Of a stretch of DNA of 41,728 nucleotides, positions 28,422-36,818 are shown one piece after another. The stretch's first letter is position 1; each line of letters begins with the position of its first letter. The DNA is from Deltaproteobacteria bacterium (lineage in GTDB: Bacteria; Desulfobacterota; Binatia; UTPRO1): the NCBI GenBank assembly GCA_005879405.1, contig VBKW01000036.1, positions 1 through 41,728 of the forward strand, in the 5' to 3' direction. The notes under the pieces are model-generated. The model was not told the DNA's origin and did no database searches. It saw nothing but the letters and a program-made list of their open reading frames with translations. The translations under genes and the position numbers were made by a program.

Positions 28422-29095
28422 TGGCACGGCCGCTCGCGCTCGGCGTCCTGCTCTCCGGCGGCGGCACCAACCTCCAGGCATTGATCGACGCGATCGCTGC
28501 GCGCGCGCTCGACGCGCGCATCGGCGTCGTCGTCAGCAACCAAGCCGCCGCCGGCGGCCTCGCCCGCGCCCGCACGCACGGCATCCCGTCGGTCGTCGTG
28601 CCGCACGGCGATTTCCCGTCGCGCGCGGCGTTCGACACCCGGCTCGTCGAGGTCCTGCACGCGCACGGCGTCGAGCTCGTCGTGCTCGCCGGCTTCATGC
28701 GCCTCGTGACGCCGGTGCTGCTCGGCGCGTTTCCGGCCCGCGTCCTCAACATCCATCCCGCCCTGCTGCCGTCGTTTCCCGGTTTGCACGCGGAGCGCCA
28801 AGCCTTGGAGCACGGCGCGCGCGTGACCGGCGTCACCGTCCACTTCGTCGACGAGCACGCCGACCACGGCCCGATCATTCTCCAGATCGCGGTGCCGATC
28901 CTTCCCGACGACGACGAGGAGCGGCTCCATCTCCGCATCCAGCGTCAGGAGCACCGCGCGTACGCGCAGGCGATCCAATGGATCGCCGAGGGCCGCATCC
29001 GCATCGACGGCCGGCACGTCCTCGTCGACGGCGCGCCGATCGACGCCGACGCGACGCTCGCGAGCCCCGGCGTCTCTCAGCGCACGTCGTCGTAG
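28421..29095 (+). CDS. purN: Phosphoribosylglycinamide formyltransferase
   Basis: MARPLALGVLLSGGGTNLQALIDAI...LAGFMRLVTPVLLGAFPARVLNIHPALLPSFPGLHAERQALEHGARVTGVTVHFVDEHADHGPII. Confidence 0.97.
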   Translation: MARPLALGVLLSGGGTNLQALIDAIAARALDARIGVVVSNQAAAGGLARARTHGIPSVVVPHGDFPSRAAFDTRLVEVLHAHGVELVVLAGFMRLVTPVLLGAFPARVLNIHPALLPSFPGLHAERQALEHGARVTGVTVHFVDEHADHGPIILQIAVPILPDDDEERLHLRIQRQEHRAYAQAIQWIAEGRIRIDGRHVLVDGAPIDADATLASPGVSQRTSS

Positions 29096-29754
29096 AGCCG
29101 CCGCAGGCGCGCCGGCGAGACGCCGAGTGCGTGCGCCAGGCGCAGCCCCCACATCAACGCGACGGTGCGCAGCGGCCCGCGCCGTTCCCAGCGTCGACCC
29201 GAGGTGACGACGCGGGCGCGCAGGCACGCCGCGCGTCCGCGACGCTTGAGCGCCGCCGTGAAGCGCACGTCCTCGAAGAGCGGTACCGTGGCGTAGCCGC
29301 CGAGCGCCTCGAACGCGACGCGGCGCACGAATATCGCCTGGTCGCCGGTCGCGATCCCCGTCCAGCGCGACCGCCAGTTCATCCCGGCGGCGACGAGCGG
29401 CAGCCAGCGGCTCGTGCCGTCGAGGTGCACGTCGAAGCGGCCGCCGACGACGCCGGGATCCGCGAGCGCGTCGGCGATCGCGACGTCGAAGCCGCGCGGC
29501 AGCAGCGTGTCGGCGTGGAGAAAGAGCAGCGTGTCCCCGCTCGCCGCCGCCGCGCCGGCATTCATCTGCGACGCCCGTCCCGCCGGCGCCCGCAGCACGC
29601 GGTCGGCGTCGCGCGCCGCGACCTCGCTCGTGCGATCACGACTGCCGCCGTCGACGACGATGACCTCGTGCACGTGCCCGCTGCGCACGCGCGCGAGCGT
29701 CGCGCCGATCGTGCGCTCCTCGTCGAGCGCCGGCACGATCACGGACAGTCGCAC
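29077..29754 (-). CDS. Glycosyltransferase family 2 (TIGR04283-like)
   Basis: MRLSVIVPALDEERTIGATLARVRSGHVHEVIVVDGGSRDRTSEVA...ASQMNAGAAAASGDTLLFLHADTLLPRGF...GGRFDVHLD...LFEDVRFTAALKRRG. Confidence 0.85.
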   Translation of the reverse strand: MRLSVIVPALDEERTIGATLARVRSGHVHEVIVVDGGSRDRTSEVAARDADRVLRAPAGRASQMNAGAAAASGDTLLFLHADTLLPRGFDVAIADALADPGVVGGRFDVHLDGTSRWLPLVAAGMNWRSRWTGIATGDQAIFVRRVAFEALGGYATVPLFEDVRFTAALKRRGRAACLRARVVTSGRRWERRGPLRTVALMWGLRLAHALGVSPARLRRLYDDVR

Positions 29755-29792
29755 GCGCCGGTGTATGGACGTGCGGCGCGCGATGTCAAACC

Positions 29793-29967: not shown

Positions 29968-30651
29968 GTGACCGATCCCGCGCTCCGCGCGTTGCTCCTC
30001 GACTACGGTGGAACGCTCGACGGCGACGCGCGGCACTGGTTCGATCATTTTCTCGAGCTCTACGCGCGCTGCGGCGTCGCGCTCTCGGCCGCGGCGTTGA
30101 AGCCGGCGTTCTATGCCGCCGACGAGGCGCTCGCGGCGGAGCCGGACGTGCGTCACTTCGGACTCGAACGCATGACGGACGCGCACGTGCGCTTGCAGCT
30201 CGCGGCGCTCGGACACACCGACGCCGCCCTGGTGCGACGGCTCGTCGACGCCTTCGTCGCTGACACGCGCGCCGCGTGGGAGCGGAATCGGCCCCTGCTG
30301 CAGCGGCTCGCACGCGCGTTGCGGCTCGGCGTCGTGTCGAACTCGTACGGCAACATGCCGGCGCTGCTCGCCGAGGCGGCGCTGGCGCCGTTCGAGGTGA
30401 TCATCGACTCAGCCCTGGTCGGCCTCCGCAAGCCCGATCCGGCGATCTACACGCTCGCCGCGCGCCGTCTCGACCTCCCGCCGGCGGCGATCCTCCACGT
30501 CGGCGACTCGTGGGAGCGCGACGTGGTCCCGGCCGTCGCGGCGGGAATGCGCGCCGTGTGGCTGGCGGCGCCGGACGCACCGGCGCCAGCCGTGCTCGCT
30601 CGTGTCACCCGCATCGCGTCGCTGCGCGAGCTGGAGGCGGTCGTCGCATGA
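29968..30651 (+). CDS. HAD family hydrolase
   Basis: LRALLLDYGGTLDGDARHWFDHFLELYARCGV...LGVVSNSYGNMPALLAEAALAPFEVIIDSALVGLRKPDPAIY...AAILHVGDSWERDVVPAVAAGMRAVWL; GTG start. Confidence 0.88.
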   Translation: MTDPALRALLLDYGGTLDGDARHWFDHFLELYARCGVALSAAALKPAFYAADEALAAEPDVRHFGLERMTDAHVRLQLAALGHTDAALVRRLVDAFVADTRAAWERNRPLLQRLARALRLGVVSNSYGNMPALLAEAALAPFEVIIDSALVGLRKPDPAIYTLAARRLDLPPAAILHVGDSWERDVVPAVAAGMRAVWLAAPDAPAPAVLARVTRIASLRELEAVVA

Positions 30652-31355
30652 GAGCGGGCATCATCGCCGCCGGGCTCGGTGAGCGCCTCCGCCGCGCCGG
30701 CATCACGACGCCGAAGCCGCTCCTCGCGATCGGCGGCGAGCCGCTCATCGCGCGCGCGATCGCCACGGTGCGCACCGCCGGCGCGACCAGCGTCGCGTGC
30801 ATCGTGAACGCCGAGACCGATCAGGTGCGACGCTTCCTCGCCGAGACGGACTTCGGCGTCCCCGTGCACGTCGTGCAGCGTACGACCGCGAGCTCGGCGG
30901 AGAGCTTTCTCGCGCTGCGGCCGCTCCTCGACGGCGCGCCGTTCCTCCTGTCGACGGTCGACGCCGTGATCGCCCCCGCCGCCGTCGCCGCGTTGGTGCG
31001 CGCGGCGACCGCGCATCGGGACGCCGCCGGCGTTCTCGGCGTCACGACCGTCGTCGACGACGAGAAGCCGCTCTGGGCGGAGCTCGGCGCCGACGATCGC
31101 ATCGTGACGCTCGGCGACGCCGCGCGTGCGCGCCACGTAACAGCCGGCGTTTACTTCCTGAAACCGCTGGTATATTCGCTCGCTGATGCGTACGGAGCCG
31201 GCAGTTGGAGCGCATTTCGCCGCGTGCTCTGCGCACTTTTGGAGCACGGTCACGTGCTCTACGGCTACGACGTCGGCCCGAGCGTCGACGTCGATCGCCC
31301 CGAGGACGTCGCCGCGGCGGAGCGGCTGCTCGGCCTGACCGGCCGCGCGGGGTGA
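30648..31355 (+). CDS. NTP-transferase domain protein (sugar/cyclitol-phosphate nucleotidyltransferase-like)
   Basis: MRAGIIAAGLGERLRRAGITTPKPLLAIGGEPLIARAIATV (GxGxR-like signature, TPKPLLxIxGxPLI); overlaps the HAD stop. Confidence 0.85.
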   Translation: MRAGIIAAGLGERLRRAGITTPKPLLAIGGEPLIARAIATVRTAGATSVACIVNAETDQVRRFLAETDFGVPVHVVQRTTASSAESFLALRPLLDGAPFLLSTVDAVIAPAAVAALVRAATAHRDAAGVLGVTTVVDDEKPLWAELGADDRIVTLGDAARARHVTAGVYFLKPLVYSLADAYGAGSWSAFRRVLCALLEHGHVLYGYDVGPSVDVDRPEDVAAAERLLGLTGRAG

Positions 31356-31359
31356 CCGC

Positions 31360-32193
31360 ATGCCGACGATCGTGGGCGTGTTTCGCGAGGCGGAGTATTC
31401 ACCCGGCAAGGTCGAGGACGATGCCGCCATCCTCGAGCGCACCGCCGCGGCGCTCACCGGCCGCGGCTTCGCCGTCCGTCTCGGCGAGCCCGCGCTCGCG
31501 CTCGCCGACGATGTCGACGCGGTGCTCGCGATGTGCCAATCGCCGGCGGCGCTCGCCGTCCTCGATGCCGCGGCGGCTCGCGTACCGGTCGTGAACGCAC
31601 CGGTCGCGATCCGCAACTGCTTCCGCACCGAGACCGTCCGCTTGCTCGCGGCGGCCGTGCCGTTTCCGGCGACGACGATCGTCGCCACCGACGCGCCGGA
31701 CGCAGTCGATCCGGCTGGGGTCGGGACGCCGTGCTGGGTGAAACGGGGCGACGTCCATGCGATGGAGCGCGACGACGTCGTCTTCGCCGCCGACGGCGCG
31801 GCGCTCGGCGCCGCGCTGGCGCGCCTGCGCGCGCGGGGAATCGTCGCGGCGGCGGTGCAGGCGCACGTCGCGGGACCCGTCGTCAAGTTCTACGGCGTCG
31901 CCGACGGCCGCTTCTTCCGTTGCTACACCGACGGCGCCGACGTGCCGGCGCCGGTCGAGCGCTTGTGGACGGCCGCACGTGCCGGCGCCGCCCTGCTCGG
32001 CCTCGACGTCTTCGGCGGCGATCTCGTCGTCACGCCGGAGGGCGAGCCGGTCTTGATCGACGTCAACGACTGGCCGAGCTTCGCGCGTTGCCGCGACGAG
32101 GCCGCGGACGCCATCGCGGGCTACCTTGCCGATCGCGTGGCGGTGCGCCGTCAACCGCACCGGGCGTCGGCGCCACGGCGGGTACACGCATGA
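31360..32193 (+). CDS. ATP-grasp family protein (RimK/ITPK-like)
   Basis: CWVKRGDVHAMERDDVVFAADGAALGAALARLRARGIVAAAVQAHVAGPVVKFYGV...FFRCY...LLGLDVFGGDLVVTPEGEPVLIDVNDWPSFARCRDEAADAIAGYL. Confidence 0.75.
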   Translation: MPTIVGVFREAEYSPGKVEDDAAILERTAAALTGRGFAVRLGEPALALADDVDAVLAMCQSPAALAVLDAAAARVPVVNAPVAIRNCFRTETVRLLAAAVPFPATTIVATDAPDAVDPAGVGTPCWVKRGDVHAMERDDVVFAADGAALGAALARLRARGIVAAAVQAHVAGPVVKFYGVADGRFFRCYTDGADVPAPVERLWTAARAGAALLGLDVFGGDLVVTPEGEPVLIDVNDWPSFARCRDEAADAIAGYLADRVAVRRQPHRASAPRRVHA

Positions 32194-32223
32194 CGCGCCC
32201 CGGCGCATCGAGAAGGGATTCGC

Positions 32224-33546
32224 GTGCAGGATAGACCGGGCCTGCGCTCACGCGCGCTCTTCCGTGACGAGCGGGACGTCATCGCCCCCGGGCAGCAGCG
32301 TATCGCGCTGCTCTCGCAGCTCGCGCTGGCGTCCGGCCAGGGCGCGAGCGTGACCGACGTCGACGGCAACACCTATCTCGATTTCTTCGCCGGCGTCGCC
32401 GTCGCGAGTCTCGGCCACGCGCACCCGCGCTACGTCGCCGCGGTCGAAGCGCAGCTGCGGCGCATCTCGGTCGGCAGCTTCACCACCGAGAGCCGCCTCC
32501 GTTTGCTGCGTCTGATCGCCCGCCTCGCGCCCGGCGACCTCGGCCGCACGCAGCTCTACAGCGGCGGCGCGGAGGCGGTCGAGGCGGCGTTCCGCCTCGC
32601 GATGTCGTACACGGGGAAGTACGAGATCGTCGGATTCTGGGGCGGCTTCCACGGCAAGACCGCGGGCGTCATGGGCCTCATCGGCGATGAGTCGAAGCAC
32701 GGCTGGGGGCCGCTGCCCGGCGGCCGCTTCTCGGTCCCGTACCCCGACTGCTACCGCTGCCCCTTCAAGCTCAGCTACCCCGACTGCGCGCTGGCGTGCG
32801 TCGACTTCGCGCGCGAGAGCATCACGCGCACGACGTCGGGCGCCGTCGCCGCGATCATCGTCGAGCCGATGCAGGGCACCGCGGGGAACGTCGTCCCACC
32901 GCCGGAGTTCCTGCCCGCGATCCGCGACCTCGCGCACGAGATCGGCGCCGTGCTCATCGCCGACGAGATGATCACCGGCTTCGGACGTACGGGCCGCTGG
33001 TTCGGCTGCAATCACACCGGCGTTGTCCCCGACGTCATGACGGTCGGCAAAGGGATGGGGAACGGCTTCCCGATCAGCGGCCTCATCTCGACCGATGAGA
33101 TCGTCGCCGCGACGCCGTTCGCGCGCCCGAGCGCGTCGTCGTCGAGCTACGGCGGCAACCCGCTCGCCGCGGCGGCGGCGCTCGCCACGTTGGAAACGAT
33201 CGTCGACGACGGGCTCGTCGAGCACGCCGCGCGCGTCGGCGCCCGCATGCTCGACGGTCTCCGCGACATGCAGGAGCGCTATCCGTTCATCGGCGACGTG
33301 CGCGGCGTCGGCCTGCTCATCGGTCTCGACCTCGTCCGCGATCGCGCCACCAAGGAGCCCCTCGGTCGCGAGGTCACCGAGCGCATCTTCACCGAGGCGC
33401 TCCGCCGCGGGCTGCTCATGATGGGCTATTTCCCGCGCGTCCGCATCAATCCGCCGCTGACGATCACGCAAGAGCAGGCGGACGCCGGCCTCGCGATCCT
33501 CGAGGAGGTGTTCGCCGCTGTCGCCGTGGAGGTGCGCGCGACGTGA
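32224..33546 (+). CDS. Class III pyridoxal-phosphate aminotransferase
   Basis: 440 aa; VTDVDGNTYLDFFAGVAVASLGHAHPRYVAAVEAQ, YSGGAEAVEAAFRLA, FHGKTAGVMGL, VLIADEMITGFGRTGRWFGC, PDVMTVGKGMGNGFPISGL (PLP lysine). Confidence 0.93.
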   Translation: MQDRPGLRSRALFRDERDVIAPGQQRIALLSQLALASGQGASVTDVDGNTYLDFFAGVAVASLGHAHPRYVAAVEAQLRRISVGSFTTESRLRLLRLIARLAPGDLGRTQLYSGGAEAVEAAFRLAMSYTGKYEIVGFWGGFHGKTAGVMGLIGDESKHGWGPLPGGRFSVPYPDCYRCPFKLSYPDCALACVDFARESITRTTSGAVAAIIVEPMQGTAGNVVPPPEFLPAIRDLAHEIGAVLIADEMITGFGRTGRWFGCNHTGVVPDVMTVGKGMGNGFPISGLISTDEIVAATPFARPSASSSSYGGNPLAAAAALATLETIVDDGLVEHAARVGARMLDGLRDMQERYPFIGDVRGVGLLIGLDLVRDRATKEPLGREVTERIFTEALRRGLLMMGYFPRVRINPPLTITQEQADAGLAILEEVFAAVAVEVRAT

Positions 33547-34616
33547 CGATCCGCCGCAACCGCGCGCTCCGCGGCGCCCTCGTCGGCTTCGGGAACGTGG
33601 CCGTTCACGGTCACGTTCCCGTGTGGAAGAACGACCGCCACTTTTCGATCCTCGCCGTCTGTGACCCCGACGAGGCGCAGCTCGCGGTCGCCGCCGAGCT
33701 GTTGCCGGACGTGCGCCGCTACCCGACGGTCGACGAGCTCTTCGCCAACGAGCGGCTCGACTTCGTGGACGTCGCGACGCCGCCCGCGCTGCACGGCGAG
33801 CTCGCGATCAAGGCCGCCGCGCAAGGGATCCACGTGCTCTGCGAGAAGCCGCTCACCCTCAGCGTCGACGAGTGCAACCGCATCCGCAGCGCGGCCAGCG
33901 CCGCCCACGTCGTCGTCTTCACCAATCACAATTGGAAGTACGCGCCGATCTTCCGCACCGCGAAGCGCGTGCTCCGTCGCGGCGAGATCGGCCGCGTGAC
34001 GCACGTGGAGCTACAAACGCTGCGGATGCAGCCGCCAGCGACGGTCGGCGAGGGCGATACCTGGCGTCTCGACCCAGCGCGCTCCGGCGGCGGGATCCTC
34101 GTCGATCACGGTTGGCATGCCTTCTACCTCGCGCTGTACGCGCTCGATGCCGAGCCGATCGCGGTGAGCGCCCGCACCGCGCGCCGCAAGTTCCTCGCCA
34201 GCGGCGTCGAGGACACCGCCAATTGCACGATCGAGTTCGACGGCGCCACGGCAGAGATCTTTCTCACCTGGGCGGCCGACGAGCGCCGCAACGCCGCCCG
34301 CTTCACGGGTGCCCAGGGGACAATCGACGTCGCCGACCGGACGCTGATCGTGCGCGTCGCCGAGCGCGCGCCGGTCGAGACAGGATTCGCGCAGCCGCTC
34401 TCGGCGGGGTCGTACCATCCCGATTGGTTCGCGGCGCTGCTCGACGATTTCCGCGAAGAGCTGTACGAGCCGAAGCTGCGCGGCGCGAACTTCCGCGAGG
34501 CGGAGACGTGCTGCCGTTTGCTCGAGCTCGCGTATCGCTCGAGCGCTGCGGACGGCGCGCGTCTGCCCTTCCGTGAGGTGTTGCCGCCGATCGAGGGCCC
34601 CGGCGCCGGTGAGTGA
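33543..34616 (+). CDS. Gfo/Idh/MocA family NAD(P)-dependent oxidoreductase
   Basis: LRGALVGFGNVAVHGHVPVWKNDRHFSILAVCDPDEAQLAVAAELLPDVRRYPTVDELF...VDVATPPALHGELAIKAAAQGIHVLCEKPLTLSVDE (EKPL signature). Confidence 0.93.
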   Translation: MTIRRNRALRGALVGFGNVAVHGHVPVWKNDRHFSILAVCDPDEAQLAVAAELLPDVRRYPTVDELFANERLDFVDVATPPALHGELAIKAAAQGIHVLCEKPLTLSVDECNRIRSAASAAHVVVFTNHNWKYAPIFRTAKRVLRRGEIGRVTHVELQTLRMQPPATVGEGDTWRLDPARSGGGILVDHGWHAFYLALYALDAEPIAVSARTARRKFLASGVEDTANCTIEFDGATAEIFLTWAADERRNAARFTGAQGTIDVADRTLIVRVAERAPVETGFAQPLSAGSYHPDWFAALLDDFREELYEPKLRGANFREAETCCRLLELAYRSSAADGARLPFREVLPPIEGPGAGE

Positions 34617-35766
34617 CGGCGCCGCGGCGCCGCTCCGGTTCGACGACGCCACATCGAGCTCTGCGCCGCCCTTCGATACCGTGCTCGTCGTCCACCCGGC
34701 GAGCGACCACGAGGTCGCGGGTCTCCACCTCGTCGAGCGCGCCGCGTTCACGCTCGCGCGCGCGGGCGCACGACGGCTCCTGTGTGTCGGCACGCGGCCG
34801 GCGCGGACGCTCCGCCGGCCGGACGTGCCGATCGCATGGGTCGCCGCGGACGACACTGCGGCGCTCGCGTCCTGGCTCGCGAATGCGACCGCCTTCGTCG
34901 TCGGCATGGACGCCGCCGCCGTGACGGACGCCGACACCGTCGTCGCGCTTGCCGCCGATCCACGCGCCGGTCTTCTCGCGACCACCGGCGGCGGGCGTCT
35001 CTGGCGCGCCCCGCGCGAGCGCGTCGCCGCGGTGCTCCAGGGCGCGGTCACGGACGCGACGCAATGGACGCCGCCGGCGGGGGGTTTCCTCCTTCCCGCC
35101 GCCGACGCCGCCGCGCGCGCGACCGCGGCGCAGGCGCTCTTCGCGCGTCTCGGGCGTCCCAGCGACGGCTGGCTCACGCGGCTCGTGGACCGCCGCATCT
35201 CGAACGCCCTCACCGGCCTGCTTCTACCGACCGGCGTGACGCCGAATCAGGTGACGGTGGCCTCGCTCGCCGCCGGCATACTCGCCAGCGGACTCTTCGC
35301 CACCGGTAGCCGCGCCGCCGCCGTCGCCGGCGCGCTCCTCTTTCTCGGCTCGACGATCGTGGACGGCTGCGACGGCGAGCTCGCGCGCCTCACGTTTCGC
35401 GAGTCCCGTTTCGGCGCGCTGCTCGACCTCGTCGGCGACAACGTCGTCCACGTCTTTCTCTTCGCCGGCATCGCGTACGGGCTCTACCGCCGCGATCACG
35501 ATCCACGCCTCGCGGTCGCCGGGTCGGCGGTCGTCCTCGGCGTCCTCGCGGCGATGATCGCCGTCTACGCCTGCCTCGCTCGCCGTGAGCCGACCGCTCG
35601 CCAACGCGCCTTGTTCCAGGCGTTCGCCAGCCGCGAGTTCGCTTACCTCCTGGTCGTCCTCACGCTCGCCGGAAAGCTCGCGTGGTTTCTCTGGATCGCC
35701 GCCGTCGGTACGTGGGCGTTCGTCGTCGCGCTCGTCGCGCTGCGACAGGATCGTCAGAAGGCGTAG
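34609..35766 (+). CDS. CDP-alcohol phosphatidyltransferase family enzyme with N-terminal degenerate nucleotidyltransferase-like domain
   Basis: DGCDGELARLTFRESRFGALLDLVGD matches the DGxxARx8GxxxDxxxD catalytic motif; followed by TM-like segments; N-terminal ~180 aa Rossmann-like (FDTVLVVHPASDHEVAGLHLVERAAFTLARAGARRLLCVG). GTG start overlaps the previous stop. Confidence 0.88.
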   Translation: MSDGAAAPLRFDDATSSSAPPFDTVLVVHPASDHEVAGLHLVERAAFTLARAGARRLLCVGTRPARTLRRPDVPIAWVAADDTAALASWLANATAFVVGMDAAAVTDADTVVALAADPRAGLLATTGGGRLWRAPRERVAAVLQGAVTDATQWTPPAGGFLLPAADAAARATAAQALFARLGRPSDGWLTRLVDRRISNALTGLLLPTGVTPNQVTVASLAAGILASGLFATGSRAAAVAGALLFLGSTIVDGCDGELARLTFRESRFGALLDLVGDNVVHVFLFAGIAYGLYRRDHDPRLAVAGSAVVLGVLAAMIAVYACLARREPTARQRALFQAFASREFAYLLVVLTLAGKLAWFLWIAAVGTWAFVVALVALRQDRQKA

Positions 35767-36416: not shown

Positions 36417-36818
36417 ATGACGCATAACCCAACCTCCCCTCGCGCCAGCGAACGCTGGGACGAGGCATTCCCGCTCCTGCCGGTACAGCATGCCGACCTG
36501 TGCCGTCGCAGCGAGCCCGTACAGCCCGAGCGCCGTCTCATGCTGGCCGTGCTGAGCGACGCGATCGTGCTGTTCCAGACGCGCGGTTCGCCCGGATGTC
36601 GCCGCGACGTCGAGAGCGCCAGACGATGGATCCTGTCCGACGATCGCGCCTGGCCGTTCTCGTTCGTCAACGTCTGCGACACGCTCGGGATCGCGTTCGA
36701 GCCGTTGCGGCGTGCGCTCACGCGGACGCTGCACGAGCTGCCGCGGGAGCACCGTACAGCGGCACGGCGGCGGCTCCTCGCGGGTATCCGCGACGAGCCG
36801 CTCGCGCGGACCGGCTGA
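36417..36818 (+). CDS. Hypothetical protein, 133 aa
   Basis: MTHNPTSPRASERWDEAFPLLPVQHADLCRRSEPVQPERRLMLAVLSDAIVLFQTRGSPGCRRDVESARRWILSDDRAWPFSFVNVCDTLGIAFEPLRRALTRTL...; GAGAGG upstream of ATG; no annotated gene opposite it. Confidence 0.65.
   Translation: MTHNPTSPRASERWDEAFPLLPVQHADLCRRSEPVQPERRLMLAVLSDAIVLFQTRGSPGCRRDVESARRWILSDDRAWPFSFVNVCDTLGIAFEPLRRALTRTLHELPREHRTAARRRLLAGIRDEPLARTG

What the first reader, a model, noticed from the sequence alone, without database searches (positions are those of the whole stretch)
29968..35766. Six-gene, translationally coupled cluster predicted to make an unusual phospholipid head group (aminocyclitol- or amino-alcohol-like)
Seen: HAD, NTP-transferase, ATP-grasp, class III aminotransferase, Gfo/Idh/MocA and CDP-alcohol phosphatidyltransferase genes are co-directional. 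Most junctions overlap or are within ~5 nt (30648/30651, 31355/31360, 33543/33546, 34609/34616). Established: nucleotidyltransferase plus CDP-alcohol phosphatidyltransferase is the IPCT/DIPPS logic of activating a phospho-alcohol with CTP and coupling it to an acceptor. Gfo/Idh enzymes include inositol dehydrogenases, and PLP aminotransferases aminate inososes in aminocyclitol pathways. Inference: oxidation then transamination of a cyclitol or sugar alcohol, phosphorylation or ligation by the ATP-grasp protein, CDP activation and transfer to a lipid. A PagL-like lipid A deacylase and a GT2 flank the cluster, consistent with envelope remodelling. I do not recognise this gene set as a characterised pathway.
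Basis: partly seen in the sequence, partly recalled or inferred. Interest (0 to 1): 0.78.

Follow-up and report, generated by a model that had tools for sequence, protein, structure and literature searches.

The report
Aminocyclitol lipid head-group gene cluster
An uncultured bacterium carries a conserved set of genes, related to an unproven inositol-lipid operon of gut Bacteroides and Prevotella but with two extra genes that should add an amino group, so it probably makes an aminated inositol-like lipid head group not described in the papers I could search; in several relatives the genes sit beside hopanoid (bacterial sterol-like lipid) genes.

Summary
In detail: six intact, co-directional, mostly overlapping genes at 29968-35766 (HAD, NTP-transferase, ATP-grasp, class III aminotransferase, Gfo/Idh/MocA, CDP-alcohol phosphotransferase). 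The set recurs in many families of the phylum and in one planctomycete, usually with an HpnL-type flippase gene. The aminotransferase and Gfo genes are absent there and are the novel addition. Inositol is supported by a MIPS gene between ATP-grasp and Gfo in one relative, MIPS beside the cluster in others, and co-occurrence across genomes. The ATP-grasp protein carries the D..DxN metal motif of inositol-phosphate kinases rather than the ExN of ligases. Best reading: inositol is oxidised, aminated, phosphorylated, CDP-activated and moved to a lipid (inosamine-type head group). The acceptor is unknown; several relatives have the cluster next to hopanoid genes (hpnH, hpnK, hpnJ, shc), so a phosphoaminocyclitol hopanoid is the boldest open reading. 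No chemistry was tested.

The parts
29968..30651 (+). HAD-superfamily gene; nucleophile D12, motifs II-IV kept, but the usual +2 catalytic Asp is an invariant Gly (DxGGTLD); proposed inositol-phosphate phosphatase or phosphotransferase
   Evidence: Pfam PF00702 9e-16; 16-row alignment including Prevotella
30648..31355 (+). Nucleotidyltransferase (MobA/IPCT-like); proposed CTP:(amino)cyclitol-phosphate cytidylyltransferase
   Evidence: PF12804 1e-11; IPCT-DIPPS model NF041135 1e-9; PDB 4jd0, named T. maritima IPCT, 3e-9; invariant AAGxGxR, PK, D105, D214/D216
31360..32193 (+). ATP-grasp protein with ITPK-like D..DxN metal motif; proposed (amino)cyclitol kinase
   Evidence: AF2 pLDDT 91.7; Foldseek RimK/Ddl and maize ITPK1 TM 0.70/0.72; profile hits RimK 1.6e-4 and inositol 5/6-kinase 7pup 2.7e-4; invariants K128 K176 D221 D234 N236
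32224..33546 (+). Class III PLP aminotransferase; proposed inosose aminotransferase
   Evidence: PF00202 1.6e-100; invariant K276, D247, R407
33543..34616 (+). Gfo/Idh/MocA dehydrogenase; proposed inositol dehydrogenase
   Evidence: PF01408, PF22725; IolG model TIGR04380 4e-24, far below its cut-off; invariant K102, D188, H192
34609..35766 (+). CDP-alcohol phosphotransferase with degenerate nucleotidyltransferase-fold N-domain; proposed head-group transferase
   Evidence: PF01066 3e-9; complete DxxDGxxAR-x8-GxxxDxxxD; AF2 pLDDT 90.3, Foldseek AF2299 and A. fulgidus IPCT-DIPPS over both domains

Best explanation
The cluster is a variant of the Bacteroidetes 'alternative' CDP-inositol lipid operon with two extra enzymes. 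Proposed route: MIPS, encoded elsewhere in this genome, makes inositol phosphate; the HAD protein releases inositol; the Gfo/Idh enzyme oxidises one ring hydroxyl; the class III aminotransferase turns the ketone into an amine (inosamine); the ATP-grasp kinase phosphorylates the aminocyclitol; the NTP transferase makes the CDP-aminocyclitol; the CAP enzyme transfers aminocyclitol phosphate onto a lipid hydroxyl; an HpnL-type membrane protein, adjacent in relatives, moves the product. Shown: gene content, conservation, intact catalytic motifs (except the HAD +2 Asp), homology to the Bacteroidetes operon, MIPS linkage and co-occurrence. Inferred: every reaction, their order, the substrate and the acceptor lipid.
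For: Six-gene set conserved across many families and in a planctomycete. B. finegoldii operon MIPS-NTP-ATPgrasp-CAP-flippase-HAD and the P. nigrescens and Parabacteroides versions, i.e. the cluster of PMC9246714. MIPS lies between ATP-grasp and Gfo in G091 and beside the cluster in G100 and G192. MIPS is present in 24 of 28 cluster-bearing genomes, the four misses all under 90% complete, against 6 of 22 genomes without the cluster (Fisher p 4e-5, not corrected for phylogeny). A Gfo of this group is present in all 11 cluster-bearing genomes tested (ten outside this window's genome) and in none of 4 without the cluster, even where it has moved away from the cluster. The same CAP subfamily is paired with a separate NTP transferase in a PEP mutase/PhnW phosphonate cluster, where the activated molecule would be the head group. 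Kinase-type metal motif.
Against: The Bacteroidetes pathway is itself unproven. In this genome MIPS sits next to an ordinary PIP-synthase-like gene, so MIPS presence is not specific. The HAD protein lacks the +2 Asp normally needed for phosphatase chemistry. The Gfo's best solved-structure match is glucose-fructose oxidoreductase, not inositol dehydrogenase. Inosose aminotransferases known to me are of another fold class (recalled, not tested). Foldseek ranks ligases above ITPK.
Confidence: 0.55

Rival explanations
1. Same CDP-cyclitol pathway, but the acceptor is a hopanoid polyol rather than diacylglycerol, giving a phospho-aminocyclitol hopanoid.
For: ispH-like-hpnH sits directly upstream of HAD on the same strand in G082. 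In G052 the whole cluster runs into TetR-hpnH-...-shc-hpnC-D-E-A, and in other f9 genomes Gfo is next to that operon. CAP-hpnL-hpnK(-hpnJ) in f11, f13, f15. CAP paralogs lie inside hpnI/J/K loci, including this genome's C2 contig. hpnH in 22 of 26 cluster-bearing genomes against 3 of 8 without (p 0.017).
Against: G002 (99% complete) has the cluster but no hpnH or shc. The homologous Bacteroidetes operon has no hopanoid link in the regions seen, and its flippase also matches HpnL. Nearness may only reflect a membrane-lipid gene island. No phosphate-linked hopanoid came up in the held library.
Confidence: 0.3
2. Plain phosphatidylinositol-type lipid made by HAD, NTP, ATP-grasp and CAP; Gfo and aminotransferase serve something else, such as the hopanoid side chain (HpnO-like amination).
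For: The Bacteroidetes operon works without the two genes. HpnO is a class III enzyme hard to tell from its relatives, and the ribosylhopane reductase is unknown (PMC12583986). Gfo lies beside the hopanoid operon in f9.
Against: The aminotransferase lies next to ATP-grasp and, in most loci, to Gfo inside the operon. Gfo sits with MIPS and ATP-grasp in G091. The G002 genome has both genes without hpnH or shc.
Confidence: 0.2
3. The ATP-grasp protein is a carboxylate-amine ligase that attaches an amino acid to an amino-alcohol head group (not necessarily a cyclitol).
For: Best Foldseek and sequence matches include RimK and D-Ala-D-Ala ligase.
Against: D..DxN instead of ..ExN metal motif, shared with inositol kinases. 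The same protein is in the inositol-lipid operon of Bacteroides, which lacks an aminating enzyme. MIPS operon linkage.
Confidence: 0.15
4. A soluble product (DIP-like compatible solute or polysaccharide precursor), not a lipid.
For: The CAP domain's best NCBIfam model is the IPCT-DIPPS solute enzyme.
Against: Conserved flippase-like neighbour; homologous operon in inositol-lipid producers; full-length fold nearest AF2299.
Confidence: 0.07

Closest known systems
Alternative inositol-lipid cluster of Bacteroides/Prevotella (Heaver et al. 2022, PMC9246714)
   Same: NTP, ATP-grasp (annotated hypothetical and not discussed in the passages I read), CAP, HAD with the same DxGGT motif, and an HpnL-like LPG-synthase-TM flippase in B. 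finegoldii; MIPS in or near the cluster
   Different: Adds a class III aminotransferase and a Gfo/Idh enzyme; CAP carries an extra degenerate NTP-fold N-domain; MIPS usually elsewhere in the genome; often near hopanoid genes
IPCT/DIPPS of thermophiles (A. fulgidus 4mnd, T. maritima 4jd0)
   Same: CTP:inositol-phosphate logic; NTP fold; CAP fold with N-terminal NTP-like domain
   Different: IPCT and DIPPS are fused in 4mnd; the window has a separate active NTP plus a degenerate N-domain; extra HAD, ATP-grasp, aminotransferase and Gfo
First steps of streptidine (streptomycin) biosynthesis (recalled, not tested)
   Same: Inositol-phosphate synthase, phosphatase, Gfo-type inositol dehydrogenase, inosose aminotransferase, then kinase
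   Different: Antibiotic rather than lipid; different aminotransferase and kinase families; no CDP activation
BHT cyclitol ether pathway HpnI/HpnK/HpnJ
   Same: Aminated cyclitol-like head group; hpn neighbours; HpnL
   Different: Ether from glucosamine by radical SAM chemistry; no CDP-alcohol phosphotransferase step
Phosphonate/phosphonolipid cluster with PntC-like NTP and CAP (G012, L074)
   Same: Same CAP subfamily with separate NTP and HpnL
   Different: Head group is 2-aminoethylphosphonate made by PEP mutase, decarboxylase and PhnW

Membership tests
Alternative inositol-lipid cluster (PMC9246714) | NTP transferase, CAP and HAD genes together | tested here: met
   Homologues at 31-32% identity in the same P. 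nigrescens operon
Alternative inositol-lipid cluster (PMC9246714) | MIPS in the vicinity | tested here: inconclusive
   Not near the window cluster; on another contig; near or inside it in G091, G100, G192, G242, G377
Alternative inositol-lipid cluster (PMC9246714) | Inositol lipid in extracts | not testable with these tools
   Uncultured organism
IPCT-DIPPS | Active cytidylyltransferase domain fused to CAP | tested here: not met
   The CAP N-domain is poorly conserved and has no NTP family hit; the NTP is a separate gene
CDP-alcohol phosphotransferase superfamily | DxxDGxxAR...GxxxDxxxD motif and membrane helices | tested here: met
   Invariant in 17 sequences; helical model
ITPK-type ATP-grasp inositol kinases | D..DxN metal ligands in ATP-grasp fold | tested here: met
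   D221, D234, N236 invariant; aligned to 7pup VDLNYLPSF against RimK MEVNASPG
ITPK-type ATP-grasp inositol kinases | Sequence membership of the ITPK Pfam/NCBIfam family | tested here: not met
   No such model hit
Inositol 2-dehydrogenase IolG | Score above TIGR04380 cut-off | tested here: not met
   85 bits against 355; Lys-Asp-His catalytic residues kept
HAD phosphatases | DxDxT motif I | tested here: not met
   DxGGT invariant in 16 sequences
BHT cyclitol ether pathway | HpnI, HpnK, HpnJ present in the cluster | tested here: not met
   Not in the window; near some relatives only

The most novel reading that the evidence does not exclude
The cluster makes hopanoids whose side chain carries a phosphodiester-linked aminated cyclitol, a class of hopanoid polar head group not described in the literature searched, with HpnL as part of the export machinery for such CDP-alcohol-built lipids.
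Probability: 0.22. Interest if true: 0.87.

Novelty: new variant of a known kind. Interest (0 to 1): 0.66.

Why it matters
It predicts an aminated inositol-type membrane lipid in uncultured bacteria. It assigns a likely kinase role to an ATP-grasp protein, annotated as hypothetical, that sits in the unproven Bacteroides/Prevotella inositol-lipid operon. It also links HpnL, a hopanoid-locus protein of unknown function, to CDP-alcohol lipid assembly in both hopanoid and non-hopanoid bacteria. Each prediction can be tested in culturable Bacteroides and by in vitro enzymology.

Tried and rejected
CAP in plasmids: no match. Planctomycetota scan gave one full cluster (G377) and one weak ATP-grasp hit on a short contig (G494, not followed). 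GT2 and PagL as cluster members: rejected, not conserved beyond the genus. Hopanoid reading resting on HpnL alone: rejected, because the Bacteroides operon flippase also matches HpnL. Weak ATP-grasp near MIPS in G024 is a different operon. Papers on inosamine phospholipids or phosphate hopanoids: none found in the held library. Not done: gene trees, so horizontal transfer and independent origins are not separated; Bacteroidota could only be reached through records in the plasmid collection.

Full report
Observation. The six genes are present as described, on the + strand, with intact frames and mostly overlapping junctions. Family assignments were confirmed with Pfam and NCBIfam. The ATP-grasp gene has no above-threshold family but folds confidently as ATP-grasp. 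The window lies in contig C277 of a 4.49 Mb assembly. Same-family records are titled Deltaproteobacteria and 'Polyangiaceae UTPRO1'; I take this to be the GTDB family UTPRO1 of Binatota (from memory, not tested).

Conservation. Neighbourhoods were compared in 46 fetched loci by tblastn and a simple GC-frame gene caller. The gene order HAD-NTP-ATPgrasp-AT3-Gfo-CAP is kept in the family f1 and, at lower identity, in f3, f11, f13, f15 and f16. In f9 the aminotransferase stays next to ATP-grasp in most loci but CAP is divergent and Gfo is usually elsewhere. An ATP-grasp profile found 16 of 247 phylum genomes; the neighbourhoods fetched for those outside the class mostly show the same set. One of about 200 planctomycetes has the full cluster. 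An HpnL-type membrane protein is adjacent in most loci. In the window's genus, L031 shows this gene plus a second CAP upstream of HAD; both are missing from the window, where GT2 lies 200 nt from HAD.

Closest known system. A plasmid-collection search with the ATP-grasp protein hit Prevotella nigrescens, whose operon is NTP-hypothetical-CAP-HAD-MIPS; the hypothetical is the ATP-grasp homologue (37%). B. finegoldii has MIPS-NTP-ATPgrasp-CAP-flippase-HAD with overlapping genes, and Parabacteroides has NTP-ATPgrasp-CAP-HAD. PMC9246714 describes this as a putative second pathway for phosphatidylinositol through CDP-inositol, functionally unconfirmed; its text contains no mention of 'ATP-grasp'. 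The aminotransferase and Gfo genes are absent from the Bacteroidetes operons and are what makes the window cluster a distinct variant.

Evidence for inositol. MIPS (PF01658) occurs in the window's genome and in 24 of 28 cluster-bearing genomes, the four without being 62-89% complete, against 6 of 22 genomes without the cluster (Fisher p 4e-5, ignoring phylogeny). In G091 MIPS lies between ATP-grasp and Gfo with short gaps; in G100 and G192 it is next to the HpnL gene. Caveat: in the window's own genome MIPS is next to an ordinary PIP-synthase-like gene, so its presence is not specific to this cluster.

Enzyme details. CAP has the full motif and its nearest folds are AF2299 and A. fulgidus IPCT-DIPPS over both domains, with a degenerate NTP-like N-domain. 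The same CAP subfamily occurs with a separate NTP transferase in a PEP mutase/decarboxylase/PhnW cluster, which supports CDP-head-group rather than CDP-diacylglycerol chemistry. The ATP-grasp protein has D221..D234-x-N236 as in inositol 5/6-kinase 7pup, while RimK has ExN. The aminotransferase keeps the PLP lysine and a carboxylate-binding arginine; Gfo keeps Lys-Asp-His. The HAD protein lacks the +2 Asp in all 16 sequences, Bacteroidetes included; its role is the weakest link.

Hopanoid linkage. In G082 ispH-like and hpnH are directly upstream of HAD on the same strand. In G052 the cluster is contiguous with TetR-hpnH-shc-hpnC-D-E-A; in other f9 genomes only Gfo is there. In f11, f13 and f15 hpnK, with or without hpnJ, follow HpnL. 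CAP paralogs sit in hpnI/J/K loci, including one in the window's genome. hpnH is in 22 of 26 cluster-bearing genomes against 3 of 8 others (p 0.017). Against: G002, 99% complete, has the cluster without hpnH or shc, and the Bacteroides operon contains an HpnL-like gene without other hopanoid genes nearby. The acceptor therefore stays open.

Conclusion. A real, widely conserved module; a variant of a putative inositol-lipid pathway with an amination branch. All reactions are predictions.

Noticed in passing
L074 1-9077 (G012): PEP mutase, phosphonopyruvate decarboxylase, PhnW-type transaminase, NTP transferase and a related CAP in a row: a likely 2-aminoethylphosphonate lipid cluster.
   Followed up: partly
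L045 (G000 contig C2) and L046 (G001): A paralog of the CAP protein sits beside an HpnL-type gene and hpnI, hpnJ, hpnK.
   Followed up: partly
L132 7781-8770 (B. finegoldii): The flippase in the Bacteroides inositol-lipid operon matches the HpnL model although no other hopanoid gene is annotated nearby.
   Followed up: partly
L044, L049, L050, L057, L136 (family f9): An extra HisB-N-like HAD-IIIA gene next to the aminotransferase and a B12-binding radical SAM gene next to CAP; both unexplained.
   Followed up: no
window 29077-29775 (-): GT2 is TIGR04283, named arsenosugar biosynthesis glycosyltransferase (260 bits, above cut-off).
   Followed up: no
window 36417-36818 (+): Small conserved protein found downstream of the cluster in four family members; its L031 homologue has no Pfam hit.
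   Followed up: no
L121 7475-8317 and 10107-10958 (G024): Two ATP-grasp-like genes flanking an ABC-transporter-like gene next to MIPS, in a different operon.
   Followed up: no
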